Assembly: GCA_030538085.1 (NCBI GenBank)
Contig: JAUNUR010000028.1
Location: 1-34,728, forward strand
Source: Pseudomonadota bacterium
GTDB lineage: Bacteria > Pseudomonadota > Gammaproteobacteria > Burkholderiales > Burkholderiaceae_C
Direction: 5' to 3'
Length of the DNA: 34,728 bases
The notes beneath the pieces were generated by a model. That model saw nothing but the letters and a program-made list of their open reading frames with translations, did not search any database and was not told the DNA's origin. The position numbers were made by a program, and so were the translations under genes. Of the stretch, positions 1-32,347 are shown one piece after another (positions within the stretch are counted from its first letter, which is position 1; each line of letters starts with the position of its first letter).

Positions 1-145
1 TCATTGCGGCGAAGGCCGCAATCCATGGGGCGTCACCTTGACACGGTATTGACCCACAGACACCGTGTGGATTGCGGCCTTCGCCGCAATGACGGGATAA
101 AGTGAAGGCATTACATAGGCTTTTCCTGAATTACGAAACTCTCTC
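1..145. repeat. Palindromic dispersed repeat, copy A (cut by window edge)
   Basis: Two 25-bp arms at 1-25 and 68-92 are inverted copies of each other, and each arm is itself a hairpin (ATTGCGGC, GAAG loop, GCCGCAAT). They are followed by the tail ending near 145 in GAATTACGAAACTCTCAA. The same core and tail occur at 32202-32347 and, in inverse orientation, at 7572-7779. The left end lies outside the window. No gene is seen between this element and 271. The double-hairpin layout resembles BIME/REP elements, and the tail matches one end of the terminal-inverted-repeat family described in the findings. Confidence 0.85.
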
Positions 146-270
146 AAGAAAACGTTTTGTAAGTCATTGATTTTTCTTCAGGTGCACCGGCCCTGCTGAC
201 AGGGTTGGGGCGCTTAATAATCGGTCTTGCTTCAGAATAGGCGTTTCGCTACGCGCATCGGAGACTTGTC

Positions 271-1640: not shown

Positions 1641-3611
1641 CTACGCTGGCCTGGTGCGATAAAACCGTAGCGCGTGCTCGGTGGCTTCGCGCGCGCCCTG
1701 CGCCAGCACGCCGCGCTTGATCTTGCCGACCACGTGCATCTCGCACGGCTTGCAGTCGAAGCGCAGGGTGAGCTTTTCCTTGCCGTTCACCAATTGCAAC
1801 GGCTCGGCCTTCACCGTGCCCTTGACGCCGATCACGCCCTTGGCCTGCTTGGGGCACAGGCTGAGCGAGTAGCGCACGCAGTGCTTGGTGATCATCAGGC
1901 TGACTTCGCCTTCTTCCTCGTGGCTTTCGTAGGCTGCATCGATCACCTTCACGCCGTGCTTCGCATAAAAGTCGCGCGCGGCGTGGTTGAACACGTTCGC
2001 CAGATAGGTGAGCGAGTCTTCGGGGTAGGGCGTGGGCGGCTGCACCGGCACGGCGCGCGGCAGGCGCTGCCAGGCTGCCGCACGGGTGGCCTCCAGCGCG
2101 GCCATGGCATCGCGCCGCAGCGCGTTGGCCACGCTGGCGGGCACGAACCAAGGGCGGGGCAGATCGAGCGCGATGTCGATGGGCGTGAAGATGGTTTCAC
2201 CCAGCTTGGCGAGCGATTCGCGCAGCTTGGCGGCATTGCTGGCTGCATCTTTGGGAGCGGCGTGCGCAAGCTGGACCTGCGCTAAAGTCGTGTGACCATC
2301 CTCATCGGTCGCTGAAAGCTGTAGGCCATCGGCGGTTTCCGACAGTTTGAGCCACACGCCGATGCGCCGGTCGGCAGACTTCTTTTCCAGCGTGCGCGCC
2401 CAGTCCATGCTGCGGTTGCGGTTGATCACGGTGCCTTTGCGCAGGTCGTGCAGTTGCGCCATCGGGTCCTTGGGGAACACGCGCCAGGCGCCATCGCCCA
2501 AGCTCTCCACGCGGTTGGTCTGCGCGCCGACCAGTTCCTTCTGCTGGTCGAAATAGCACAGGCCGTCGCCGTTCGACAGTTGCAGCGCCGCATCGTCGGC
2601 CATCAGCTCGAAGTGGTCCTTGCCCACGCGGGTGACGAAGCCGATGGGCTGGCCGGGGTTCTTGGGCGTGTCGAAGGCGCCGATGTCTTCTTTCCGGCCA
2701 TTGACAAAGTAGTCGGTGAACTCGCGGTTGAAGTTCTGCTCGGGGTCGGGCGCGAAGGTGAAACTGCAGCGGCCCGACGAGCCGCGCGCCAGTTCGGGCC
2801 GCTCTTCCAGAATCTCGTCGAACAGGCGGCGGTAGTGGGCGGTGATGTTCTTCACGTAGCCCATGTCCTTGTAGCGGCCCTCGATCTTGAAGCTGCGCAC
2901 GCCGGCGTCGATGAGCGGTCGCAGGTTCAGGCTCTGGTTGTTGTCCTTCATGCTCAGCACGTGCGCGTCGTGGGCGACGAAGCGGCCTTGCGCATCCAGC
3001 ACCTGATAGGGCAGGCGGCAGGCCTGCGAGCAGTCGCCGCGGTTGGCGCTGCGGCCGGTGTGGGCATGGCTGATGTAGCACTGGCCGCTGTAGGCCACGC
3101 ACAGCGCGCCGTGGATGAAGAATTCCAGCGTGCAGCGGTCGGGGTCGGTAGCAGCACGCACGGCGGTGATTTCTTGCAAATCGAGTTCGCGCGCGAGCAC
3201 GATCTGGCTCAGGCCCGCGTCCTGCAGAAAGCGCGCCTTCTCGGGTGTGCGGATGTCGGTCTGCGTGCTGGCGTGCAGTTGCAGGGGCGGCAGGTCCAAC
3301 TCGAGCAGGCCCATGTCCTGGATGATGAGCGCGTCGGCACCGGCTTCGTACAGTTGCCAGGCCAGTTGGCGCGCGGGCTTCAGTTCGTCGTCGCGCAGGA
3401 TGGTGTTGAGCGTGACGAAGATGCGCGCGTCGAAACGGTGCGCGTGGCGCGTCAGGCGCTCGATGTCGGCCAGCGCATTGCCCGCGCCGGCGCGGGCGCC
3501 AAAGCCGGGGCCGCCGATGTAGACGGCGTCGGCGCCGTGGTTGACGGCCTCAATGCCGATGTCGGCGTCGCGCGCGGGGCTGAGCAGTTCAAGCTGGTGG
3601 GGCGGGGGCAT
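1641..3611 (-). CDS. rlhA: U32 peptidase-family 23S rRNA hydroxylase, RlhA-like
   Basis: This 656-residue protein belongs to the U32 family. It begins with the conserved LELLSPARDADIGIEAVNHG and DAVYIGG segment, continues through a TIM-barrel-like half, and carries the four-cysteine signature: ALCVAYSGQC then GDCSQAC (Cys171, 178, 194, 198). Family members RlhA and TrhP hydroxylate 23S rRNA C2501 or tRNA wobble uridine, probably with iron-sulfur help and a prephenate-derived oxygen route. The length, with a long C-terminal part containing two more cysteine pairs (CVRYSLSLC and CKPC), matches E. coli RlhA (about 650) rather than the shorter TrhP (about 450). The longest frame begins at a TTG at 3629; the ATG at 3611 fits the family start better. 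It is transcribed away from AsmA across a REP palindrome. Confidence 0.85.
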   Translation of the reverse strand: MPPPHQLELLSPARDADIGIEAVNHGADAVYIGGPGFGARAGAGNALADIERLTRHAHRFDARIFVTLNTILRDDELKPARQLAWQLYEAGADALIIQDMGLLELDLPPLQLHASTQTDIRTPEKARFLQDAGLSQIVLARELDLQEITAVRAATDPDRCTLEFFIHGALCVAYSGQCYISHAHTGRSANRGDCSQACRLPYQVLDAQGRFVAHDAHVLSMKDNNQSLNLRPLIDAGVRSFKIEGRYKDMGYVKNITAHYRRLFDEILEERPELARGSSGRCSFTFAPDPEQNFNREFTDYFVNGRKEDIGAFDTPKNPGQPIGFVTRVGKDHFELMADDAALQLSNGDGLCYFDQQKELVGAQTNRVESLGDGAWRVFPKDPMAQLHDLRKGTVINRNRSMDWARTLEKKSADRRIGVWLKLSETADGLQLSATDEDGHTTLAQVQLAHAAPKDAASNAAKLRESLAKLGETIFTPIDIALDLPRPWFVPASVANALRRDAMAALEATRAAAWQRLPRAVPVQPPTPYPEDSLTYLANVFNHAARDFYAKHGVKVIDAAYESHEEEGEVSLMITKHCVRYSLSLCPKQAKGVIGVKGTVKAEPLQLVNGKEKLTLRFDCKPCEMHVVGKIKRGVLAQGAREATEHALRFYRTRPA

Positions 3612-3767
3612 CGGGCGATTATCTTTCAAATCGGCCTGTTGCGCCCGCTGGCAAAGCGGCAGAAGCTATGCAAATGATAGCGATTCATCTTTATCCAGGA
3701 TAAAAAGAGCTTGCTTATCAACGAGTTTCAGAGCGTGCAAGCATGCACGCGGTTTTCCATCGTTTTT

Positions 3768-7493: not shown

Positions 7494-7571
7494 TCTTGAT
7501 AATCAAGAAGCTGTGAAAGTCAGTGCTCATGCCAGTTGTCCAAGGATGACGAGCGGTCAACTGCCGTTTTC

Positions 7572-7779
7572 ATTGAGAATTTCGTGATTCAGGACAAGCC
7601 TATGTCATGCCTTCACATCATCCCGTCATTGCGGCGAAGGCCGCAATCCACACGGTGCCCGTGGGGCAACACCGTGTCAAGGTGACGCTCCATGGATTGC
7701 GGCCTTCGCCGCAATGACGAGGGGATGTGAGGGGGTTTTTCTGATGGCCCGCGCTGGCGTGATTTTTGAAAATCTCAAT
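7572..7779. repeat. MITE-like element, copy B, with terminal inverted repeats and palindromic core
   Basis: The left end (ATTGAGAATTTCGTGATTCAGGACA) and right end (GCGTGATTTTTGAAAATCTCAAT) are imperfect inverted repeats of about 25 bp. The interior holds the same double hairpin as copy A, in opposite orientation: TCATTGCGGCGAAGG... near 7626 and its inverse at about 7693-7717. This is the most complete copy, 208 bp. It carries no protein gene, so any mobility would need a transposase from elsewhere. It sits between convergently transcribed kptA and ppiC-like genes. Confidence 0.75.
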
Positions 7780-7844
7780 AGGTTGAAGTGGAAATGGCGT
7801 GACGATTCTCTTTGCTGGAGCGGTAAAGGCCGTGCAGCCAAGAC

Positions 7845-7868
7845 AAACGGGCACCGAAGTGCCCGTTT
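7845..7868 (-). terminator. Intrinsic terminator of the parvulin gene
   Basis: A perfect 10-bp stem (AAACGGGCAC / GTGCCCGTTT) encloses a four-base loop that reads TTCG on the minus strand, a very stable tetraloop. On that strand it is followed by GTCTTGG after the three Ts that close the stem. It lies 26 bases past the stop codon of the minus-strand parvulin gene, at the end of the selO-to-parvulin block. Confidence 0.8.
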
Positions 7869-7894
7869 GATGTGGATTGCGCGCGGCGCGCGGT

Positions 7895-8713
7895 TTATTG
7901 GATCTTGGCCTTGGTTCGCAGTTCTTCCTGGAACTTCACCAGTTTCTGCTGCTGCATCTGCTGCACGATCTGCGGCTTGACGTCCTCGAACTTGGGCAGC
8001 TCGGGCGCCTTGGCTTCGCGGATGTCGTCCACGCGGATCACGTGGTAGCCAAACTGCGACTTCACCGGCGCATCGGCCAGTTGCCCCTTGTCGAGCTGGG
8101 TCAGCGCGTTGGCGAACTCGGGCACGTAGCCTTGCGGGTTGGCCCAGCCCAGATCGCCGCCCTGGGCGCCGGAGCCGGGGTCCTTGGACTGCTTCTTGGC
8201 GATGTCCTCGAACTTGGCGCCTTTTTTCAGCTGGGCGATGATGGCCTTGGCCTCGTCTTCCTTCTCGACCAGGATGTGGCTGGCCTTGTATTCCTTGGCG
8301 CCGGCGGCGGGCGCCTGGGAGCCGACCACGCGGTCGTATTCGGCCTTGGCTTCCTCGTCGGTGACCTTGTTCTTCTCCTGGTAGTCGGCGAACAGCTCGT
8401 TGATCATCACGCTCTGGCGCGCCAGGTCCATCTTGGCGCGGAAGCCGGGCGAGGCCTCGATGCCGCGGCGCTGCGCTTCTTGCATGAAGATTTCGCGGGC
8501 GATGACTTCCTCGCGCAGTTGCTTGTCCATGTCGGGCGGCACGGGGCGGCCGGTGCGCGCGGCCTGCTCGTTGATCTGCTCCGCCAGCGCGTCCAGGCGT
8601 GTCTTGGGCACGGGCTTGCCGTTGACGATGGCGACGTTCTGCGCCATCACGGGCAGCGCCAGGGCGCTGGCCAGCATGGCCGCCGCGGAAACGGTCAGAA
8701 ACTGTTTTTTCAT
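7895..8713 (-). CDS. Secreted peptidylprolyl isomerase, parvulin (PpiC/PrsA-like)
   Basis: This is a 272-residue periplasmic foldase. The start at 8713 gives a clear signal peptide: MKKQFLTVSAAAMLASALAL ending VMAQ, with cleavage likely after MAQ. An N-terminal chaperone-like helical region (about 25-130) precedes a parvulin rotamase domain with the family landmarks YKASHILV, QSKDPGSGAQGGDLGW and GYHVIRVDD. Such proteins help fold exported or outer-membrane proteins by isomerising prolyl bonds. An upstream extension to 8800 is open but would bury the signal peptide, so it is rejected. The C-terminal tail (PQIVQQMQQQKLVKFQEELR) is a charged helix. A strong intrinsic terminator follows. Confidence 0.9.
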   Translation of the reverse strand: MKKQFLTVSAAAMLASALALPVMAQNVAIVNGKPVPKTRLDALAEQINEQAARTGRPVPPDMDKQLREEVIAREIFMQEAQRRGIEASPGFRAKMDLARQSVMINELFADYQEKNKVTDEEAKAEYDRVVGSQAPAAGAKEYKASHILVEKEDEAKAIIAQLKKGAKFEDIAKKQSKDPGSGAQGGDLGWANPQGYVPEFANALTQLDKGQLADAPVKSQFGYHVIRVDDIREAKAPELPKFEDVKPQIVQQMQQQKLVKFQEELRTKAKIQ

Positions 8714-8808
8714 GGTGTCAAAAAAGGAAGGGGAAAGCCCGTCCGAGCCGGGATGAAAAGCGCGTGAAAGCGGTTGAGAAGGCGAAAAAGCAGTCCGCAA
8801 GGTTCTCT

Positions 8809-9075
8809 TCAGCGGGTTTCGATGGCGAGGGCGTGCACGCCATCGTGGTCGATGAATTTTTGCAGCGCATCATATACGAGGCGGTGCCGCGCCACGCGGC
8901 TTTGGCCCTCGAAGCGCGGCGATGCGATGCGCACGCGGAAATGGGTGCCAAAGCCCGTGCCGTTGGCGCCGGCGTGGCCGTCGTGCTGCCAGCTTTCGTC
9001 CAGCACTTCGAGTTCGGTGGGTTGCAGTTGCTGGCGCAGGTGTTCGGCCATGTGGTCGGCCAGGGTGTTGCTCAT
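8809..9075 (-). CDS. BolA family protein
   Basis: This 88-residue protein has the BolA/IbaG fold signature, including [20 protein letters not shown] followed by LVYDALQ and an HALAIET end. BolA proteins partner with monothiol glutaredoxins around iron-sulfur clusters and affect cell shape and stress responses. The ATG at 9075 overlaps the stop of yciB (ATGA, 9072-9075) and has a strong ribosome-binding site, GGAGGA at 9081-9086, so translational coupling is expected. The invariant-type His of the family is present in the [10 protein letters not shown] region. BolA next to YciB is a familiar pairing in betaproteobacteria. Confidence 0.88.
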
Positions 9076-9632
9076 GTCGATCCTCCAGGGGGCAGTTCGG
9101 CGCCGGGTTCGTCCTTCAGGTGCCGTGCCACGTAGACGCCCTGGCCGATGATGAAGGCGATTGGGAACACGTAGCCCCACAGCTTGAAGTTGGCCCAGGC
9201 GTCGGTCGAGAAATAGGCCGCCACGTAGCCGTTGATGGCGGCCATGAACAGGCAGTAGCCGATCCAGGCGATGGTCAGCCGGTGCCACACGAAGTCGGGC
9301 AGGGTGAGCTGGCTGCCCAGCATGATCTGCAGGAAGTTCTTGCGAAAGCCCCACAGCGCCACGGCCAGCGCCACCGCCATGGCGACGTAGAGCACCGTGG
9401 GCTTCCATTTGATGAAGCGCTCGTCCTGCAGGATCAGGGTGAGCGCGCCAAAGATCAGGATCAGGGCCAGCGTGGCCTTGTGCATGGTGGTCAGCTTCTT
9501 GTCGAGCACGTAGATGACGGCCATTTGCACGCAGGTGGCGGCCATGAGCACGGCGGTGCCCACGTAAATGCCCCACAGCTTGTAGGCGCCGAAGAACAGC
9601 AGGATGGGCAGGAAGTCGAGCAGCAGTTTCAT
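9072..9632 (-). CDS. yciB: Inner-membrane septation protein A, YciB/IspZ family
   Basis: This 186-residue polytopic membrane protein begins [20 protein letters not shown], the near-invariant start of YciB. It has about five predicted transmembrane segments, the conserved [11 protein letters not shown] and [11 protein letters not shown] regions and a late [15 protein letters not shown] segment. The family is linked to cell-envelope synthesis and septation, through contacts with elongation and division proteins in E. coli and Shigella. The gene sits between msrB (9 bases upstream) and bolA (overlapping), forming part of one minus-strand transcription unit. Confidence 0.92.
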
Positions 9633-9641
9633 CGCGGCGGA

Positions 9642-10049
9642 TTATCGCGGCTCGAAATCGAGGGACGCGGAGTTCATGCAGTAGCGCAGGCCGGTGGGTG
9701 CGGGGCCGTCCGGGAACACATGACCCAGGTGCGCGCCGCAGTTGGCGCAGACGGTTTCGACACGCACCATGCCGTGGCTCAAGTCGCGCCGCTCCTCGAT
9801 GGCGCCGGGAATCGCCAGCGAGAAGCTGGGCCAGCCGCAGCCAGCGTCGAACTTGGTGCCCGACTCGAACAGTTTGCTGCCGCAGCAGATGCAGTGGTAG
9901 CTGCCGTCGGCCCAGTGCTGTTCGTACTTGCCGGTGTAGGGGCGCTCGGTGGCGGCCTGGCGGGTGACCTGGTAGGCCGGGGCTTCAGCGCCCTTGGCGG
10001 CCAGCAGGGTGCGCCATTCGTCGTCGGTTTTCTGGATAGGATGGGTCAT
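9642..10049 (-). CDS. msrB: Peptide-methionine (R)-S-oxide reductase MsrB
   Basis: MsrB reduces methionine-R-sulfoxide in proteins. The 135-residue product has every family landmark: the zinc-binding pairs CICCG (Cys53 and Cys56) and CANCG, the [10 protein letters not shown] loop with a resolving cysteine candidate, GAHLGHVF, and the catalytic RYCMNSASL near the C-terminus. No signal peptide is present, so it is cytoplasmic. The ATG at 10049 overlaps the selO stop codon (ATGA); a TTG at 10058 is the only other in-frame start. Coupled translation with selO suggests a shared redox-response role. Confidence 0.94.
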
Positions 10050-11539
10050 GAGGAACAACTGATCTGGATGTGGGATGCCCAGTCGGGCGGAAAACCGGCC
10101 CAGTCGGCATGCTGGGGATGGTCGTCGAACGGGCGCTCCAGCACGGCCAGCAGATTTTCGACCATGCGGAAGTCCTTTTGTTTCGCCAGCGCGATGGCCT
10201 GCTCGGCCAGGTAGTTGCGCAGCACGATGGTGGGGCTGGAATGATGCATCAAATTGGCATCTGTCGCTTGTCCATCAATCGTTGTTAGCTCTTTATGTCG
10301 TAGCAAAAGGTGCTCGATGGCCGCGCGGTCGTGAAACAGGTCTTGCACCGTGTCGGCGGGCGCGCCGGCGGCATGCAGGGCCAGGCGGCGCCAGAAGATG
10401 GTCCAGTCGGTGCGCTCGCGCGCCATCAGCTTGAGCAGTTCGCCTACCAGCGCGCGCGTGCCGTCGTTGGCTTGGGCCAGGCCCAGCTTGGCGGCCATGC
10501 GGCGGTCCAGCTCGGCGGGGAAGGCGTTCTTATACGGCTCCAGCGCGGCCATGGCCTCGTCCGGTTCGCCGATCAGCGGCAGCAGCGCCTGGCCCAGGGC
10601 GAACAGGTTCCAGTGCGCGATCTGCGGCTGGCGCTGGTAGCTGTAGCGCCCGCCGTGGTCGCTGTGGTTGCAGATGTGGGCCGGATCGAACCCGTCCATG
10701 AACTGGAACGGGCCGTAGTCGATGGTCAGGCCCAGGATGCTCATGTTGTCGGTGTTCATCACGCCGTGCATGAAACCCACCGCCTGCCATTGGGCGATGA
10801 GCGCCGCGGTGCGCTGCGTGACGGCGGTCAGTAGCGCGGCGTAGGGGTTCGGGGCTTCGCGGCATTCGGAATAGAAATGCTCGATCACGAAATCGGCCAG
10901 CGCACGCAGTGCCTCGGGCTGGCCGTGGTGGCTGAAATGCTCGAAATGCCCGAAGCGGATGAAGCTGGGCGCCGCGCGGGTGACGACGGCGGCGGTTTCG
11001 ATCTCTTCGCGCCGAACCGGCTGGTCGGAGCCGGTGATGCACAGCGCCCGCGTGGTGGGGATGCACAGGCCGTGCATGGCCTCGCTGCACAGGAATTCGC
11101 GGATCGACGAGCGCAGCACGGCGCGGCCATCGCCCATGCGGGAATAGGGCGTCAGGCCGCTGCCCTTGAGCTGCAGTTCCCACCACTGGCCGTCGGGTGC
11201 CTGTACCTCGCCCAGCAGGTGCGCGCGCCCATCGCCCAGTTGCCCGGCCCAGACGCCGAACTGGTGGCCGCTGTAGACGCTGGCCAGCGGCTGGCTGCCG
11301 GGCGGCAGGTGATTGCCGGTGAACGCATCCAGCGCCTGCCGCGAATGCCACCAGTCTTCTTCCAGGCCCAGCTCGCGCGCCATCGACTGGCTGCGAGCGA
11401 CCCAGTACGGGTCGCGCAGTGGCATCGGCGCCAGCCGGGTGTGGAACGCTTCACCCAGGCTGGCAAAGCGATGGCGCCATGCCAGGCCCAGGTTGTCCGG
11501 CGCGGCGCCGGATGTCATGGGGTGCTGCATGGGCGGCAT
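10046..11539 (-). CDS. selO: Protein adenylyltransferase SelO (YdiU)
   Basis: SelO is a pseudokinase-fold enzyme that transfers AMP from ATP to Ser/Thr/Tyr of target proteins, including redox proteins. This 497-residue copy shows [60 protein letters not shown] and [10 protein letters not shown], the active-site blocks of the family. It ends in CSS, the same antepenultimate cysteine that is selenocysteine in animal SelO. An AT-rich stretch at 10246-10306 (encoding the region around [16 protein letters not shown]) looks like an inserted dispersed repeat kept in frame. Starts at 11539, or in-frame ATGs slightly downstream, are possible. It is the first gene of the minus-strand block. Confidence 0.93.
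10265..10292. repeat. Comamonadaceae-type short repeat inside selO
   Basis: The segment CGCTTGTCCATCAATCG... aligns with 24985-25012 (CGCTTATCCATCAAGCG...) at about 23 of 29 bases. It shares the TGTCCATCAA core with the complement of 21519-21540. It is AT-rich compared with the surrounding coding sequence and is translated in frame on the minus strand as part of SelO. Confidence 0.5.
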
Positions 11540-11660
11540 TGTCCGGGGCCTGGCCTAACCATGCAGGCGCGTGGGTGAAGAGCTGTCTCGTCCAGGGCAG
11601 TCGGCGCCGCGCTTATCAATTAGTATTTCGCGCCACCGACTCAACAAACTGGAGACTCCG

Positions 11661-13289
11661 ATGCTGGGCTTGATGCAGAACCATCCGCTGCTGATTTCGT
11701 CGCTGATCGACTTTGCCGCCAGGCACCACAAGGACGGGCAGGTGGTGTCTCGCCGCGTGGAAGGCGACATCCACCGCTACACCTGGGCCGACGTGCAGCA
11801 GCGCTCCAAGCAGGTGGCCAACGCGCTGGAAGCGCTGGGCCTGAAGGCGAGCGAGCGCGTCGGCACGCTGGCCTGGAACGGCTACCGCCACCTGGAGCTG
11901 TACTTTGGCGTCAGCGGTTCGCAGCGCGTGCTGCACACCATCAACCCGCGCCTGCTGCCCGAGCAGATCGCCTGGATCGTCAACCACGCGGAAGACCAGG
12001 TCCTGTGCTTCGAGACCAGCTTCCTGCCCATCGTGCAGGGCATCCACGCGCACTGCAAGACCGTCAAGCACTGGATCGCGCTGTGCGACGAGGACAAGCT
12101 ACCCAAGGACACCGGCATCCCCAACCTGCTGAGCTACGAGGCCTGGATCGGTCGGCAATCGACCGAATACGCCTGGCCCGTGTTCGACGAGAACACGGCG
12201 TCGAGCATGTGCTACACCAGCGGCACCACGGGTCACCCCAAGGCGGCGCTGTACAGCCACCGCTCCACCGTGCTGCATGCCTACGCCGCCGCGCTGCCCG
12301 ACGTGATGGGCCTGTCGGCGCGCGATTCGGCGCTGCCGGTGGTGCCCATGTTCCACGTCAACGCCTGGGGCCTGCCGTACTCGGCGGCCATGGTGGGCTG
12401 CAAACTGGTGTTTCCCGGCCCGGCGCTTGACGGCCAGTCGGTCTACGAGCTGATGGAGGCCGAGAAGGTCACCTTCGCCGCCGGCGTGCCGACGGTGTGG
12501 CAGATGCTGCTGGGCCATGTGGGGCAGAACAAGCTGAAGTTCTCCACCCTCAAGCGCACGGTGATCGGTGGCTCGGCCTGCCCGCCGGCCATGATCGACA
12601 CGTTCCGCAACGACTACGGCGTGGATGTGCTGCACGCCTGGGGCATGACCGAGATGAGCCCGCTGGGCACGCTGTGCACGCTGAAGGAAAAGCACCGCGA
12701 TTTGCCCGAAGACCAGCAAATGGCGCTGCGCCTGAAACAGGGCCGAGCCATCTTCGGCGTCGACATGAAGATCGTCGGCGCCAACGGCGAGGAACTGCCC
12801 TGGGACGGCAAAACCTATGGCGACCTGTACGTGAAGGGCTCGTGGATCCTCGACAAGTACTACAAGAGCGAGGGCAGCGATCCGCTGAGGGATGGCTGGT
12901 TCCCCACGGGCGACGTGGCCACCATCGACGTCGACGGCTTCATGCAGATCACCGACCGCAGCAAGGACGTGATCAAGTCGGGCGGCGAGTGGATCAGCTC
13001 CATTGACATCGAGAACGTGGCCATGGCCCACCCGGCTGTCGCCATGGCAGCCTGCATCGGCATGCCGCACCCCAAGTGGGACGAGCGCCCCATCGTGGCG
13101 GTGACGCTCAAGCCCGGCGCCGAGGTGACGCGAGAGGAGTTGCTGAAGTTCTACGAAGGCCGCGTTGCCAAATGGCAGGTGCCGGACGACGTGGTGTTCG
13201 TCGACTCGATTCCCATCGGCGCCACCGGCAAGATGCTCAAGACCAGGCTGCGCGACCAGCTCAAGGACTACAAGCTGCCGACGGCTTGA
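11661..13289 (+). CDS. Long-chain fatty acid--CoA ligase (AMP-binding)
   Basis: This 542-residue enzyme of the adenylate-forming family activates a carboxylic acid to its CoA thioester through an acyl-AMP. It carries the P-loop [10 protein letters not shown] (185-194), the MFHVNAWG segment, [12 protein letters not shown], the hinge-region [12 protein letters not shown] and [15 protein letters not shown], and the late catalytic lysine in ATGKMLK (Lys524). It belongs to the medium/long-chain group common in beta-oxidation clusters. The ATG at 11661 has GGAG upstream; the longer frame to 11571 lacks support. A good intrinsic terminator follows, so it may be transcribed separately from the transporter genes downstream. 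Confidence 0.9.
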
Positions 13290-13335
13290 TTTGATGGCAG
13301 GTCCCAGGCGGCTCGTCTGGCTGGGGCGCGACGGG

Positions 13336-13370
13336 AAGGCTCGCCCTTCGCACCGGAGGGTGAGCTTTTT
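13336..13370 (+). terminator. Intrinsic terminator after the acyl-CoA ligase gene
   Basis: The arms GCTCGCCCT (13339-13347) and AGGGTGAGC (13357-13365) form a nine-pair stem with one G-U pair and a nine-base loop, followed directly by five Ts. It begins 47 bases after the ligase stop codon. Confidence 0.75.
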
Positions 13371-13410
13371 GTTGTGTGATTCCAGTTCCAGACCAAGGCC
13401 GTGATGCCTA

Positions 13411-13510
13411 CATCATTCCGGCGCGAAGCCTGCTCGTACAGCGATAAGGGGCCTGAATCCAGACGGCCCGTGCGGGGAAACATGGATCCCGGCCTTCGCC
13501 GGGATGACGG
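13411..13510. repeat. Dispersed palindromic repeat (GGATCCCGGCCTTCGCCGGG type)
   Basis: The segment ends AAACATGGATCCCGGCCTTC followed by GCCGGGATGACGG, with a degenerate inverse arm CATTCCGGCGCGAAGCC at its left. A similar right arm occurs at 17708-17742. This kind of sequence is widespread as an intergenic repeat in proteobacteria. It directly precedes the element at 13535-13649. No gene is seen in 13290-13691. Confidence 0.65.
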
Positions 13511-13534
13511 CTGTTGACGTTTCGCAGCGGAGTT

Positions 13535-13649
13535 ATTGAGATTTTCAAAAATCAGGACAGCGTGGGCTATCAGAAAGAACCCCTCACATTCCCTCGTCAT
13601 TGCGGCGAAGGCATTAAATAGGCTTGTCCTGAATTACGAAACTCTCAAT
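13535..13649. repeat. MITE-like element, copy D (internally deleted)
   Basis: The left end ATTGAGATTTTCAAAAATCA followed by GGACAGCG, and the right end TTGTCCTGAATTACGAAACT followed by CTCAAT, are imperfect inverted repeats. The interior has only CATTGCGGCGAAGGCATTAA in place of the roughly 95-bp core seen in copies A and C: it jumps from the first GAAGGC to the second. The right end lies 43 bases before the chosen livH start and probably contributes to its leader. Confidence 0.75.
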
Positions 13650-13691
13650 CGACAAAACACGACAGAACAAGAACAGCTTTTCGGATTTGCC

Positions 13692-14735
13692 TTGGAGTCC
13701 TTCATCGTCACCTTGCTGAGCAGCCTGAGTTACGGGCTGTTCCTGTTCATGCTCAGCGCCGGCCTGACCCTCATCCTCAGCATGATGGGGGTGCTGAACT
13801 TCGCGCATGCCAGCTTCTACATGCTGGGCGCCTACATCGGTTACACGCTGTCGGGCGCCATCGGCTTCTGGGCGGCGCTGGTGCTGTCGCCCATTCTGGT
13901 GGCCGTCCTGGGTGCATTGTTCGAGAAGTACTGCCTGCGCAAGGTGCATAAATTCGGGCATGTGTCCGAGCTGCTGGTCACCTTCGGCCTGTCCTACATC
14001 ATTCTGGAAGTGGTGCAGCTCGCCTGGGGCCGCCCGGCGCTTGATTTCAGGCCGCCCGGGGCGCTGCAAGGGCCGGCATTCACGCTGATCAACCACTCGG
14101 TCGAAGGCATGCGCCTGGTCTGGGGCGCGGCGCCCGATGGCGCCTGCCGCGTGGCCGATGCCGCGGTGCGCGTGGCGTGCTCGCCGTTTCCGGCCACGCG
14201 GGCGCTGATGATGGTGGTGGCCGTGCTCATGCTGGTCGGCATCTGGCTGCTGCTCACGCGCACCCGCATCGGCTACATCATCCAGGCCGCGCTGACGCAC
14301 CCCGACATGGTGGAGGCGCTGGGGCACAACGTGCCGCGCGTGTTCATGCTGGTGTTCGGCGCCGGCACCGGGCTGGCGGCACTGGCCGGCGTGATCGGCG
14401 GCAGCACCTTCGTGACCGAGCCGGCCATGGCCGCCACCGTGGGCGCCATCATCTTCGTGGTGGTGGTGGTCGGTGGCATGGGCTCGCTGGCGGGGGCGTT
14501 CGTGGCTTCGCTGCTGATCGGCGTGATCCAGACCTTCGCCGTGGCGCTCGACTACTCGCTCATCACTCTGGCGGGGCACCTGGGCATTCAGCTCAGCCAG
14601 GCGGCGCGCGAGAACTCGCTGGTCAAGCTCACGGTGTCGCAGGTGGCGCCGATCCTGCCGTATCTGCTGCTGGTGCTGGTGCTGGTCTTCCGTCCGCGTG
14701 GCCTGCTGGGCGCACGGGAGACCTGGAGCCAATGA
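13692..14735 (+). CDS. livH: Branched-chain amino acid-type ABC transporter permease, LivH family
   Basis: This 347-residue inner-membrane permease has the LivH hallmarks: TLILSMMGVLNFAHASFYML near the N-terminus, then about eight transmembrane segments, the TRTRIGYIIQAALTHPDMVE cytoplasmic coupling loop and GGMGSLAGAFVASLLIGVIQ. The longest frame runs back to 13536 but would translate a dispersed repeat. The TTG at 13692 gives LESFIVTLLSSLSYG, matching the usual MEsF start of the family, and is preferred. A loop of about 45 residues between two helices (VWGAAPDGACRVADAAVRVA) is longer than I expect. Its stop overlaps the livM start (ATGA). The name is by family; the substrate is more likely an organic acid than leucine, given the neighbours. 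Confidence 0.82.
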   Translation: MESFIVTLLSSLSYGLFLFMLSAGLTLILSMMGVLNFAHASFYMLGAYIGYTLSGAIGFWAALVLSPILVAVLGALFEKYCLRKVHKFGHVSELLVTFGLSYIILEVVQLAWGRPALDFRPPGALQGPAFTLINHSVEGMRLVWGAAPDGACRVADAAVRVACSPFPATRALMMVVAVLMLVGIWLLLTRTRIGYIIQAALTHPDMVEALGHNVPRVFMLVFGAGTGLAALAGVIGGSTFVTEPAMAATVGAIIFVVVVVGGMGSLAGAFVASLLIGVIQTFAVALDYSLITLAGHLGIQLSQAARENSLVKLTVSQVAPILPYLLLVLVLVFRPRGLLGARETWSQ

Positions 14736-16027
14736 GCACCACCGCGTCGCCCTCGGCGCTACCCTCCGCGCCCGCGCGGCTGCTGATCTGGGGTGGCTTC
14801 GCGCTCGTGCTGGCGGTGGCGCCGCTTGTCTTCAGCAGCCATCTGTCGATCAGCATGCTGGCGCAGATGGGCGTTGCCATCATTGCCTGCCTGTCGTACA
14901 ACATCCTGCTGGGGCAGGGCGGCATGCTCAGCTTCGGACACGCGGTGTATACCGGCCTGGGCTCCTTCGTGGTCATTCACGTGCTCAATGCCGTGGCGGC
15001 GGGGCGCTGGCACATTCCGGTCAGCCTGCTGCCGCTGGTGGGCGGGCTGGCGGGCTTGTTTTTCGCGGCTCTGCTGGGCTGGGTGAGCACCCGGAGATCC
15101 GGCACCACCTTCGCCATGATCACGCTGGGCATCGGCGAGCTGGTGTTCGCCATGTCGCTGATGATTCCCGAATTCTTCGGCGGCGAGGCCGGCGTGTCGG
15201 GCAACCGCGTGGTGGGCGATCCGGTCATGGGCATCAGCTACGGCCCGGCGCGGCAGCTTTATTACCTGATCGCCGTCTACACCTTCGCGTGCGTGCTGCT
15301 CATGTACGCATTCACGCAAACGCCGCTGGGCCGCATGCTGAACGCGGTGCGCGACAACCCGGAGCGGGTCGAGTTCATCGGCTACAGCGGCCAGCACGTG
15401 CGCTATCTGGTGTTCATCGTCGCGGGCTTTTTCGCCGGCATCGCGGGCGGTCTGGCGGCGCTGCACTTCGAGCTGGTCACGGCCGAGGTGGTGGGCGCCA
15501 GCCGCTCGGGCGCCTACCTGTTGTTCACCTTCCTGGGGGGCGCCACCTTCTTCTTCGGCCCCATCATCGGCGCGGTGCTGATGGTGTTCGCCTCCGTGCT
15601 GCTGTCGGAGCTGACCAAGGCCTGGCTGCTGTACCTGGGCCTGATCTTCGTGTTCATGGTGATGTACGCGCCCGGCGGCATCGCCAGCCTGGTCATGATG
15701 AACGTGCGGGTGGCCGCGCGCGGCAAATTTGGCCGCGTGGCGCCCAGCCTGGCGCTGCTGCTGCTGGCCGCCCTGGTGGCGCTGGCGGGCGCGGGCGCGC
15801 TGATCGAGATGGTCTACAGCCTGCAACTCGACTCGATGAGCGACGCGGTGCGCTTCGCCGGCATGACGCTGCATGCCCGGGACACGGCGCACTGGCTGAT
15901 CTTCGGCGGCCTGTTCGTGGCCGGCGCGCTGGCGCTGGAATGGGCGCGCCGCCGCCATGCGCGCGCGTGGGCCGTGGTGCAGGCCGAGATCGAGCAGGAA
16001 AACCAGCCCGCGCGGGAGGCGGCATGA
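14732..16027 (+). CDS. livM: Branched-chain amino acid-type ABC transporter permease, LivM family, extended
   Basis: This 431-residue permease opens with a short cytoplasmic tail. It then carries the LivM signature LSYNILLGQGGMLSFGHAVY (55-74), the TFAMITLGIGE segment and the coupling helix TPLGRMLNAVRDNPERVEFI (197-216). The usual LivM fold ends near MYAPGGIASL (311-320). Here about 110 further residues follow, with two extra hydrophobic segments (about 338-355 and 388-403) flanking a periplasmic loop, and a charged tail. The ATG at 14732 overlaps the livH stop, and the stop overlaps the livG start, so the transporter genes are translationally coupled. Confidence 0.88.
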   Translation: MSTTASPSALPSAPARLLIWGGFALVLAVAPLVFSSHLSISMLAQMGVAIIACLSYNILLGQGGMLSFGHAVYTGLGSFVVIHVLNAVAAGRWHIPVSLLPLVGGLAGLFFAALLGWVSTRRSGTTFAMITLGIGELVFAMSLMIPEFFGGEAGVSGNRVVGDPVMGISYGPARQLYYLIAVYTFACVLLMYAFTQTPLGRMLNAVRDNPERVEFIGYSGQHVRYLVFIVAGFFAGIAGGLAALHFELVTAEVVGASRSGAYLLFTFLGGATFFFGPIIGAVLMVFASVLLSELTKAWLLYLGLIFVFMVMYAPGGIASLVMMNVRVAARGKFGRVAPSLALLLLAALVALAGAGALIEMVYSLQLDSMSDAVRFAGMTLHARDTAHWLIFGGLFVAGALALEWARRRHARAWAVVQAEIEQENQPAREAA

Positions 16028-16815
16028 ACGCCGCGACACCCGCATCCGGTTACGCGATCGAGCTGCGCGGGCTGCACAAGCGCTTCGGCAAGACGGAGGT
16101 CATTCGCGGCGCCAGCCTGGCGGTGCGTCCGGGCGAGCGCGTGGCCATCATTGGCCCCAATGGCGCCGGCAAGTCCACCCTGTTCAACCTGATCAGTGGG
16201 CGCCTGGCCCCCACCAGCGGGCAGGTGCTGCTGAACGGCCAGCGCATCGACGGCAGGAAGCCGTATGAGATCAACCGCCTGGGGCTGGCGCGCAGCTTCC
16301 AGATCACCAACCTGTTTCCCCGCTTGAGCGTGTTCGAGAACCTGCGCTGCGCGCTGCTGTGGAAGATGGGCTACCGCTACACCTTTCTGCGTTTCCTGTC
16401 ACGCCTGCACGATGCCAACGCGCGCACCGACGAGCTGCTGCGCATGATCCAGTTGCAGGGCAAGCGCGACGTGCTGGCCATGAACCTGCCTTATGCCGAG
16501 CAGCGCGCGCTGGAGATCGGCGTGACGATTGCCGGCGGCGCCGACGTGATCCTGCTGGACGAACCCACCGCCGGCATGAGCCGCGGCGAAACGCGGCACT
16601 TCATCGAACTGATCCGCCGGGTGACCGAGGGCAAGACGCTGCTGACCGTGGAGCACGACATGGGCGTGGTGTTCGGCCTGGCCGACAAGATCGCCGTGGT
16701 GGTACATGGCGAGGTGATCGCCTTCGACACGCCGGAAGCGGTGCGGGCCGACCAGCGCGTGCAAGAGGCGTACCTGGGCTCCGCCATCGCCGATGCCCAG
16801 GTGGGAGAACGCTGA
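16024..16815 (+). CDS. livG: ABC transporter ATP-binding protein, LivG family
   Basis: This 263-residue ATPase energises the LivHM permeases. It has the Walker A GPNGAGKS (44-51), Q-loop region ARSFQITNLFPRLSVFENL, Walker B VILLDEPTAG (Asp179-Glu180) and switch His211 in VEHDM. The signature motif reads LPYAEQ (155-160), with Ala where most LivG proteins have Gly (LPYGEQ), a conservative change. The characteristic LivG insert after the Q-loop (WKMGYRYTFLRFLSRL) is present. The start overlaps livM and the stop lies two bases from the livF ATG. Confidence 0.92.
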   Translation: MNAATPASGYAIELRGLHKRFGKTEVIRGASLAVRPGERVAIIGPNGAGKSTLFNLISGRLAPTSGQVLLNGQRIDGRKPYEINRLGLARSFQITNLFPRLSVFENLRCALLWKMGYRYTFLRFLSRLHDANARTDELLRMIQLQGKRDVLAMNLPYAEQRALEIGVTIAGGADVILLDEPTAGMSRGETRHFIELIRRVTEGKTLLTVEHDMGVVFGLADKIAVVVHGEVIAFDTPEAVRADQRVQEAYLGSAIADAQVGER

Positions 16816-16817
16816 GC

Positions 16818-17513
16818 ATGCTCCAGGTTGACCGCCTCCACGCCTACTACGGCAAGAGCCATGTGCTGCATGGCGTCAGCTTCGGTGTCCGGCGCGGCGA
16901 AATCGTTGCCCTGCTGGGGCGCAACGGCTCGGGCCGCTCGACCACCGCCAAGGCCATCATGGGCATGGTGCATGGCGAAGGCGTCATCGACTTCAAGGGG
17001 CAAGCCATCCAGGGCCGCAAACCCCACGAGATCGCCCGCATGGGCCTGGGCTACGTGCCGGAAAGCCGCGACGTGTTCCCGCGCCTGACGGTGCGCCAGA
17101 ACCTGCTGCTGGGACAGAAGGGTGGGGGCAAGCACGGGCGCTGGAGCTTCGACGACATGTACGCCATGTTCCCGCGCCTGAAAGAGCGCGAGCACACCGA
17201 GGCCGGCGTGCTCTCGGGCGGCGAGCAGCAGATGCTGACGCTGTGCCGCACGCTGATGGGCGCCCCCGAACTCATCATCATCGACGAGCCCACCGAGGGC
17301 CTGGCGCCCAAGCTCGTCGAGCTGGTGGCCGACTACTTGACGATGCTGAAAGAGCGCGGCGTATCGGTGCTGCTGATCGAGCAAAAGCTGACCATTGCCA
17401 TGCGCATCTCCGACCGCGCGCTCGTCATGGGCCACGGCAGCATCGTGTTCGACGGCACGCCGGACGAGCTGCGCGCCGATGCGGCCACACGAAAGGAGTG
17501 GCTGCAGGTGTGA
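16818..17513 (+). CDS. livF: ABC transporter ATP-binding protein, LivF family, Walker A Lys-to-Arg
   Basis: This 231-residue ATPase is the partner of LivG. It shows LHAYYGKSHVLHGVSF, the signature LSGGEQ (132-137), Walker B ELIIIDEPTEG (Asp156-Glu157) and the LLIEQKL switch region with Gln in place of His, as is usual for LivF. The Walker A motif is GRNGSGRS (34-41): the canonical lysine is Arg40 (codon CGC at 16935-16937). This could weaken hydrolysis at one of the two ATP sites, or be a conserved feature of a LivF subgroup. No substrate-binding protein gene follows; a repeat element begins 34 bases downstream. Confidence 0.92.
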   Translation: MLQVDRLHAYYGKSHVLHGVSFGVRRGEIVALLGRNGSGRSTTAKAIMGMVHGEGVIDFKGQAIQGRKPHEIARMGLGYVPESRDVFPRLTVRQNLLLGQKGGGKHGRWSFDDMYAMFPRLKEREHTEAGVLSGGEQQMLTLCRTLMGAPELIIIDEPTEGLAPKLVELVADYLTMLKERGVSVLLIEQKLTIAMRISDRALVMGHGSIVFDGTPDELRADAATRKEWLQV

Positions 17514-17547
17514 CGCCCGCCCACAACTGGGGGTTCGCCAGCCATTT

Positions 17548-17663
17548 ATTGACGTTTTCAAAAATCACGACAGCGCGGGCCATCAGAAAGAAATCTCCCT
17601 CTCCCTCTGGGAGAGGGTTGGGGTGAGGGCAAGCGGCGTGTCATGAATTACGAAACTCTCAAT
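17548..17663. repeat. MITE-like element, copy E, with a different palindromic interior
   Basis: The ends ATTGACGTTTTCAAAAATCA followed by CGACAGCG, and TCATGAATTACGAAACTCTC followed by AAT, match those of copy D. Between them sits CCCTCTCCC, TCT, GGGAGAGGG (17597-17617) plus TTGGGGTGAGGG. This interior is unrelated to the ATTGCGGC core of copies A-C but matches the palindromes at 22323-22346 and 24380-24499. It lies downstream of livF and may act as a transcript end. Confidence 0.72.
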
Positions 17664-32201: not shown

Positions 32202-32347
32202 TCATTGCGGCGAAGGCCGCAATCCATGGGGCTTCACCTTGACACGGTGTTGACCTGCGGACACCGCGTGGATTGCGGCCTTCGCCGCAATGACGGGATG
32301 AGGTGAAGACATGACATAGGCTTGTCCTGAGTCACGAAAACCTCAAT
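32202..32347. repeat. Palindromic dispersed repeat, copy C
   Basis: The arms at 32202-32226 and 32269-32293 repeat those of copy A in the same orientation. The tail CATAGGCTTGTCCTGAGTCA and CGAAAACCTCAAT follows to 32347. The opposite terminal repeat seen in copies B, D and E is missing; the element begins 24 bases after the SDR stop codon. Next to it, 32354-32392 resembles the right arm of the repeat at 20114-20150. No gene lies between 32178 and 32465. Confidence 0.82.

What the first reader, a model, noticed from the sequence alone, without database searches (positions are those of the whole stretch)
7572..17663. A family of MITE-like elements with shared terminal inverted repeats and interchangeable palindromic interiors
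Three loci (7572-7779, 13535-13649, 17548-17663) have ends that pair as imperfect inverted repeats of about 25 bp: one end reads ATTGAGATTTTCAAAAATCA then GGACA, and the inverse of the other reads ATTGAGAGTTTCGTAATTCA then GGACA. Copies A (1-145) and C (32202-32347) keep only the second end. The interiors differ: a double ATTGCGGC hairpin in A, B and C, a deleted version in D, and a CCCTCTCCC/GGGAGAGGG hairpin in E. Same ends with different contents suggest a mobile frame that picks up REP palindromes, which ordinary REP/BIME models do not describe.
Basis: partly seen in the sequence, partly recalled or inferred. Interest (0 to 1): 0.75.

Follow-up and report, generated by a model that had tools for sequence, protein, structure and literature searches.

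The report
Jumping DNA frames carrying borrowed palindromes
This bacterium carries well over a hundred copies of a tiny jumping element whose ends match a known family of mobile genes, while its middle is one of several different palindromic repeats, which suggests how such repeats, some of them without a known mover, could spread through genomes.

Summary
The two ends (L: ATTGANATTTTCAAAAATCACGACA; R: ATTGAGAGTTTCGTAATTCAGGACA) are the termini of a miniature transposable element (MITE) family with 296 end sites in the 3.5 Mb genome. The 93 complete copies read fall into two length classes, 109-117 and 197-212 bp, none between. T precedes and A follows in 63 of 69, so TA is the likely target. 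IS630-family elements of 1.1 kb with the same kind of ends exist in relatives, one in the same genus; no such transposase was found in this draft genome. So this is an IS630-type MITE, not a REP/BIME variant.

The unusual part also holds. Scanning other genomes with the ends alone gave 41 MITE-sized frames, in mostly betaproteobacterial records. 40 carry one of five palindrome classes; one is a plain deleted IS (classes post hoc). The hairpin of copy E also matches 59 plasmid records; in the 4 read, no frame ends lie around it. The palindrome in A-D fits the CGTC REP type, said in print to lack a dedicated transposase (PMC3733652). Mobilisation and capture are inferred, not shown. I file it as a new variant of a known kind.

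The parts
7572..7779 (-). Copy B: complete 208-bp frame (R end at 7572, L end at 7779) with a CGTC-type REP pair inside
   Evidence: folds as single-stranded DNA with z = -9.67 against 200 shuffles
7572..7596 (+). R end of copy B (ATTGAGAATTTCGTGATTCAGGACA)
7755..7779 (-). L end of copy B
7624..7650 (+). CGTC-type REP: CGTC head, ATTGCGGC stem, GAAG loop, CCA tail
   Evidence: sequence; family description in PMC3733652
7693..7719 (-). Second REP, inverted, tail facing the first
   Evidence: inverted pair I6
13535..13649 (+). Copy D: 115-bp deleted form of the REP-pair type; loss between GCGAAGGC and GTGAAGGC
   Evidence: same junction in L002
17548..17663 (+). Copy E: complete 116-bp frame with the CCCTCTCCC/GGGAGAGGG hairpin, T before and A after
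   Evidence: folds as single-stranded DNA with z = -2.74
17597..17617 (.). CCCTCTCCC-TCT-GGGAGAGGG palindrome of copy E
   Evidence: the hairpin is also found in congeners without end matches and in plasmids
1..143 (+). Copy A: REP-pair type cut by the start of the contig; R end carries the extra module
144..218 (+). Extra module of about 75 bp (here called gamma) attached to the R end of copy A
32202..32347 (+). Copy C: REP pair plus R end, no L end
7548..7571 (-). Edge of another dispersed repeat (here called beta; GAAAACGGCAGTTGACCGCTCGTC) that borders copy B

Best explanation
These loci are copies of a family of IS630-type MITEs. Each is a non-coding frame with about 25-bp terminal inverted repeats that inserts at TA, often CTAG. 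It is moved in trans by an IS630-family transposase that binds the two ends and does not care what lies between them. The middle has been filled more than once by palindromic repeats: a CGTC-type REP pair (A-D) and a CCCTCTCCC hairpin (E); the hairpin at least also exists as an independent repeat. Once a palindrome sits between the ends, every jump copies it, so the frame spreads it. Shown: ends, fixed lengths, TA flanks, copy number, IS630 elements with the same kind of ends in relatives, several palindrome classes in equivalent frames, and the same flanking repeat with and without the MITE. Inferred: that the transposase acts in trans on these frames, that a parental IS630 was once present in this genome, and that the palindromes entered an existing frame (by insertion, or by recombination at short homologies such as CAAGC or between REPs) rather than arising there.
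For: (1) 276-296 end sites in G000, 0 for the reversed control. (2) Two discrete length classes in 93 complete copies; median pairwise identity 0.908 (58 long) and 0.931 (35 short). (3) With 24 copies set aside for the extra module or a shifted edge, T left and A right in 36 of 40 long and 27 of 29 short copies, base frequencies about 0.17 each; 36 of 41 frames in relatives. (4) The beta repeat occurs uninterrupted as CCTAGAAACGG and with a MITE at that TA; of 93 joined-flank queries 20 matched across the junction and I judge 3 (L135/L170, L186/L124, L016/L152) to be clean uninterrupted sites. (5) Paired ends of the same pattern 1078-1100 bp apart in G315 (two), G149, G316, G211, G074 and, in the same genus, G001; transposase frames were read in four of these seven (L071, L073, L074, L206), and the G001 ones match NF033545 IS630 transposase (137.4 bits, cut-off 100) and DDE_3 (106.6 bits, cut-off 28.6). 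(6) The ends-only scan gave 41 MITE-sized frames: 15 c2, 10 c3, 8 c4, 6 c1, 1 c6 palindromes, 1 IS-deletion derivative. (7) L-hairpin-REP pair-L composites of 264 and 263 bp at two sites, both flanked by T...A. (8) The hairpin of E matches 59 plasmid records, none covering 80% of the element; 4 of 4 read have no frame ends within 400 bp.
Against: No DDE_3 transposase was found in G000, though it is a 134-contig draft with contigs ending inside copies. The exact parent was not found: the G001 IS ends differ from the L and R ends at several positions. The ATTGCGGC form of the REP is nearly confined to G000 (345 sites, against 0-3 in each of 28 congeners), and 88 of the 100 listed sites lie in frames, so this palindrome may have diverged inside the frame. 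Palindrome classes were defined after seeing the elements. Only 21 of 41 cores matched held DNA outside frames, against 18 of 410 controls, and four loci in that DNA had been chosen for the c2 hairpin. One c3 core, one c4 core and the whole copy B had no match in plasmids. The orthologous test fixes one edge only.
Confidence: 0.85

Rival explanations
1. The palindromes arose inside the MITEs as part of their own foldback structure; solo copies elsewhere are debris of MITEs that lost their ends, as described for QMITE2 of Coxiella.
For: 88 of 100 listed ATTGCGGC palindromes lie inside frames and 28 congeners have 0-3 each. Truncated copies without one end exist (copy C). QMITE2 small forms are described as REP-like (passages of PMC5896051).
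Against: The CCCTCTCCC hairpin is in 23 of 29 genomes of the genus, the own one included (22 of 28 congeners), among them genomes with 0 end matches at up to 2 mismatches, e.g. G018 with 68 hairpins and G010 with 40. It matches 59 plasmid records, and the 4 read have no frame ends. The c2 hairpin lies without frame ends in 4 of 5 plasmid loci read, 3 Sphingobium and 1 Comamonas. Several dissimilar palindromes within one end type would need as many separate inventions.
Confidence: 0.15
2. These are ordinary REP/BIME elements moved by a RAYT (REP-associated tyrosine transposase); the shared outer sequences are just conserved BIME flanks.
For: Copies A-C contain a REP pair of the CGTC type and D a remnant of one.
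Against: The ends are shared with copy E, which has no such REP, and in kind with IS630 elements of relatives. Flanks are TA. CGTC REPs are reported not to be associated with transposase genes (PMC3733652). A RAYT gene was not searched for here.
Confidence: 0.03
3. The frame is a passive landing pad: palindromes inserted many times independently into existing MITEs, so frames do not spread palindromes.
For: Several palindrome classes occur in frames of one end type.
Against: Within a type the whole element is one sequence family (median identity 0.908 over 58 copies, 0.931 over 35) with constant junctions, which fits few captures followed by amplification. REEB372 contigs hold near-identical 116-bp copies at different sites.
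Confidence: 0.05

Closest known systems
IS630-derived MITEs: Correia elements (Neisseria) and RUP (Streptococcus pneumoniae)
   Same: Short non-coding elements with terminal inverted repeats, related to IS630; PMC2817692 names both as IS630-derived (passages). TA target duplication is recalled for these families.
   Different: Different end sequences (recalled, not compared here); in what I saw those families are not described as carrying several different palindromes in one end type.
QMITE2 of Coxiella burnetii
   Same: A MITE of 150-190 bp that contains a REP, with truncated copies that look like plain REPs (abstract and passages of PMC5896051).
   Different: GTAG REP, direct repeats of 7-11 nt of variable sequence instead of TA, a single content.
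CGTC REPs, with 8-bp stem and 4-nt loop
   Same: CGTC head, stem starting AT, CCA tail, paired in opposite orientation (passages of PMC3733652; sequence).
   Different: Here the pair sits inside a transposon frame; the paper reports no dedicated transposase for CGTC REPs.
REP dimers inside palindromic frames in Anabaena variabilis (GTAG-15) and H. neapolitanus (CGTC-1)
   Same: The 2013 paper notes dimers lying within longer palindromes, e.g. TATAGGA...TCCTATA, and did not find those frames without REPs in these two species.
   Different: It treats them as target palindromes; in the passages seen there is no IS630 partner and one content per frame.

Membership tests
IS630-type MITE | Terminal inverted repeats | tested here: met
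   25-bp imperfect ends in 93 complete copies; consensus
IS630-type MITE | TA target duplication | tested here: met
   63 of 69 copies; beta repeat with and without a MITE at its TA. Orthologous unoccupied site only partial
IS630-type MITE | Ends shared with an autonomous IS630 element | tested here: met
   Same end pattern in relatives, including congener G001; no DDE_3 match in the own draft genome; exact parent not found
IS630-type MITE | Short, without a transposase gene | tested here: met
   109-212 bp, composites 263-264 bp
IS630-type MITE | Moved in trans by the IS630 transposase | not testable with these tools
   Needs a transposition assay
CGTC REP (interior of A-C) | CGTC head, 8-9 bp stem starting AT, 4-5 nt loop, CCA tail | tested here: met
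   CGTC-ATTGCGGC-GAAG-GCCGCAAT-CCA at 7624-7650 against the description in PMC3733652
CGTC REP (interior of A-C) | Dispersed on its own, outside transposon frames | tested here: inconclusive
   88 of 100 listed copies are in frames; related REP variants lie outside frames at 13474 and 17707 and matches limited to the REP part occur in congeners
RAYT-driven REPIN/BIME | Associated tyrosine transposase gene flanked by the REPs | not tested
   No RAYT search was made in this genome

The most novel reading that the evidence does not exclude
IS630-type frames are a general vehicle for orphan palindromic repeats in Betaproteobacteria. The transposase sees only the ends, so the same kind of frame has captured at least six palindrome classes (two of them, c3 and the ATTGCGGC pair, CGTC-like REPs) and has amplified and spread them. 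This would be the missing mover of CGTC REPs and of several untagged hairpin families.
Probability: 0.45. Interest if true: 0.8.

Novelty: new variant of a known kind. Interest (0 to 1): 0.62.

Why it matters
How REP-like palindromes without a dedicated transposase spread is an open question stated in PMC3733652 (passages). This family links a CGTC-type REP pair and several other palindromes to one definite, testable enzyme family and end sequence. If the frames move, palindromes hypothesised to act in transcription termination or mRNA stabilisation (that paper's abstract) would be delivered to new sites by a transposase that has no need of the palindrome itself.

Tried and rejected
The DDE_3 profile found no transposase in G000, and by eye none of 52 unpaired ends led into transposase-like sequence: they led into REP-pair, hairpin or related REP interiors or ran off a contig or stretch. 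The idea that the extra module is just another target was dropped after finding it attached at one junction, 3 bp inside the ends, at both L and R ends and on both element types; by eye 18 of 20 places chosen by the module alone carry a MITE end, L322 and L328 do not. Orthologous empty-site test: the block that holds the beta repeat, the module and the MITE in L170 (query about 2750-3670, some 920 bp) is replaced by 47-178 bp in the 6 congeners read; right-hand homology starts at the MITE edge (query 3667-3671) in 4 of 6, at 3693 and 3703 in the others, but the left side does not align, so no precise unoccupied site is claimed. Paper searches (listings) showed no description of this family; Mattes et al. 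2008 on Polaromonas, cited for MITEs by PMC10969869, was not held, so an earlier partial description there cannot be excluded. Plasmid searches with one c3 core, one c4 core and the whole copy B gave no match.

Bias notes: complete copies were counted only as one L plus one R end less than 260 bp apart, so L-L composites were found separately among the unpaired ends. The 80 own stretches were taken mostly in list order from the places printed, unseen; not all printed places were taken, and searches printed about 100 of 186 and of 192 places. The 24 copies set aside before the TA count are 23 with the module at a flank and one (L123) with a shifted edge. Palindrome classes were drawn up after seeing the elements; several of the 41 frames are copies of one family.
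Full report
WHAT IS THERE. The window is G000:C69:1-34728 of a 3.5 Mb, 134-contig draft genome. Copies B, D and E have the described paired ends, C has one end, and A is cut by the contig start. In the whole genome the joint end pattern ATTGANNNTTTCNNNANTCANGACA occurs 139 + 137 times with up to one mismatch and 151 + 145 times with up to two; the reversed control pattern occurs 0 times.

ANATOMY. I read 30 loci, 80 further stretches and the window. 93 distinct complete L-R copies fall into 35 of 109-117 bp and 58 of 197-212 bp, none in between. All 58 long copies carry the REP sequence; of the 35 short ones 32 carry the hairpin and 2 (D and L002) a REP remnant by simple pattern. Both types share about 45 bp at the L side and about 20-25 bp at the R side. 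Median pairwise identity is 0.908 (long) and 0.931 (short); columns 6 and 7 of the L end are variable (0.40, 0.60 in long copies), the first three lie at 0.86-0.90 and most of the rest of the 25-bp end at 0.95 or more. Copy B folds as single-stranded DNA far better than 200 shuffles (z -9.67), E weakly so (z -2.74, 1 of 200 shuffles as good). Copy D and L002 share one deletion junction.

INSERTION SITE. With 24 copies set aside (23 with an extra terminal module, 1 with a shifted edge), T precedes and A follows in 36 of 40 long and 27 of 29 short copies (window base frequencies 0.177 and 0.170), with CT before and AG after in 19 of 40 and 18 of 29. A dispersed repeat (beta, 321 bp at L170:3002-3322, CCTAGAAACGG...CCGTTTCTAGG) occurs uninterrupted at its CTAG and, elsewhere, with a MITE at that TA. 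Of 93 joined-flank queries, 20 had a match across the junction in held own DNA; I judge 3 to be clean uninterrupted sites, the rest being other MITE or module sites or gapped. In the 6 congeners read, the orthologous interval of one insertion block is 47-178 bp instead of about 920, and homology resumes at the MITE edge in 4 of 6, but the other edge cannot be aligned.

THE ENZYME. PF13358 finds nothing at E <= 0.001 in G000 but matches in 14 of 29 genomes of the genus, the own one counted. Searching 399 genomes of the family with the end pattern (up to 1 mismatch) gave matches in 35. Some are pairs 1078-1100 bp apart: G315 (two read), G149, G316, G211, G074, and in the same genus G001. Transposase frames were read in four of these seven (L071, L073, L074, L206). 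The G001 element has two overlapping open frames (180 and 193 aa), consistent with orfA-orfB frameshifting. The second matches NF033545 IS630 transposase at 137.4 bits (cut-off 100) and DDE_3 at 106.6 bits; the first matches the N-terminal part of NF033545 at 95.1 bits, under the cut-off, and HTH models.

INTERCHANGEABLE CONTENTS. Congeners G003 (7 frames read) and G014 (2) carry 115-121 bp frames with the same CCCTCTCCC hairpin but diverged ends, which suggests that this type is older than the species; G004 carries 193- and 374-bp frames with a TTCGACA hairpin; G066 and G211 (other genera) carry frames with GTCATTGCGA repeats. In them 41 frames of 60-500 bp were found (one end with at most 1 mismatch, the other with at most 4): 15 have the TTCGACA hairpin (c2), 10 the GTCATYGC repeats (c3), 8 AAATCCC/GGGATTT repeats (c4), 6 the CCCTCTCCC type (c1), 1 GGGGTCAGAGT (c6), and 1 (L271, Collimonas) is an internally deleted IS630 whose remnant reads ...NKLKSAQKRPSIIAACWAQATLW*. 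The classes were named after seeing the elements, and several frames are copies of one family, so 41 is not 41 independent captures. In G000 itself, L114 and L124 are 264- and 263-bp composites with L ends on both sides, holding the hairpin and the REP pair, both flanked by T...A; a third (L188) is cut by the fetched stretch.

ARE THE CONTENTS INDEPENDENT REPEATS? For the CCCTCTCCC hairpin, yes as far as tested: it is in 23 of 29 genomes of the genus (22 of 28 congeners), including G018 (68) and G010 (40), where no end matches were found. The interior of E matches 59 plasmid records (Klebsiella, Escherichia, Variovorax and others), none covering 80% of the element; in the 4 that I read, Variovorax (2), Mitsuaria and Azospirillum, no end-like site with up to 5 mismatches lies within 400 bp. 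For the TTCGACA hairpin, 4 of 5 plasmid loci read have no frame end, and 1 (Polaromonas) has a frame. For the ATTGCGGC form the evidence is against full independence: 345 sites in G000, 0-3 in each of 28 congeners, 88 of 100 listed sites in frames (one of the 12 others, C24:744, lies beside a module-bearing end). Related REP variants lie outside frames in the window (13474, 17707), and one truncated copy (L134) has the L end joined to such a variant REP, which suggests recombination between REPs inside and outside frames. In a class-free test, 21 of 41 cores matched held DNA outside frames, against 18 of 410 random segments, but four loci in that DNA had been picked for c2. One c3 core, one c4 core and the whole copy B had no match in plasmids.

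INTERPRETATION. The best reading is an IS630-type MITE family whose transposase (in trans, inferred) recognises the ends only, so that palindromes caught between the ends are amplified with them. The constant junctions within each type argue for few captures and much amplification. The capture step itself (insertion of the palindrome into a frame, or recombination at short homologies such as the CAAGC junction of the composites) is inference.

RELATION TO PRINT. PMC3733652 (abstract and passages) defines CGTC REPs, states that they apparently lack a dedicated transposase, asks whether other transposases move them, and mentions REP dimers inside longer palindromes in two species. PMC5896051 (abstract and passages) describes QMITE2, a MITE with a GTAG REP. 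PMC2817692 (passages) names Correia and RUP as IS630-derived MITEs. PMC10969869 (abstract and passages) is a 2024 review that cites MITEs in Polaromonas from a paper not held here. PMC12306157 was seen only as one reference-list passage. My searches (listings) showed no report of IS630 frames with several palindrome classes.

Noticed in passing
window 144-218; L003, L028, L118 and others: A module of about 75 bp (TCAAGAAAACGTTTTG...GGGTTGCTC) sits 3 bp inside MITE ends, at L and R ends and on both element types; 56 sites in G000, and by eye 18 of 20 places fetched by the module alone carry a MITE end. It may be a third mobile element that targets the ends.
   Followed up: partly
L170:3002-3322; L338: A 321-bp dispersed repeat with inverted ends (CCTAGAAACGGCAGTTG...CAACTGCCGTTTCTAGG), multicopy in G000 and matched in congeners, whose CTAG edge is a recurrent MITE site; C67 has MITE-repeat-MITE in a row.
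   Followed up: partly
L114:504-767, L124:354-616, L188:3252-3401: Composite elements with both contents and, in the two read in full, L ends on both sides, joined at CAAGC, which look like fused remnants of two MITEs that were still able to jump.
   Followed up: partly
L134, L end at 1296: L end joined to a different REP variant and then to other sequence, as if REPs inside and outside frames had recombined.
   Followed up: no
G001 (congener), 24 DDE_3 matches: One congener has 24 DDE_3 matches, many short or near contig ends, which may point to a recent IS630 burst.
   Followed up: no
L271:626-782 (Collimonas): 157-bp frame holding the 3' end of an IS630 transposase frame: a plain internal-deletion MITE, in none of the palindrome classes.
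   Followed up: partly
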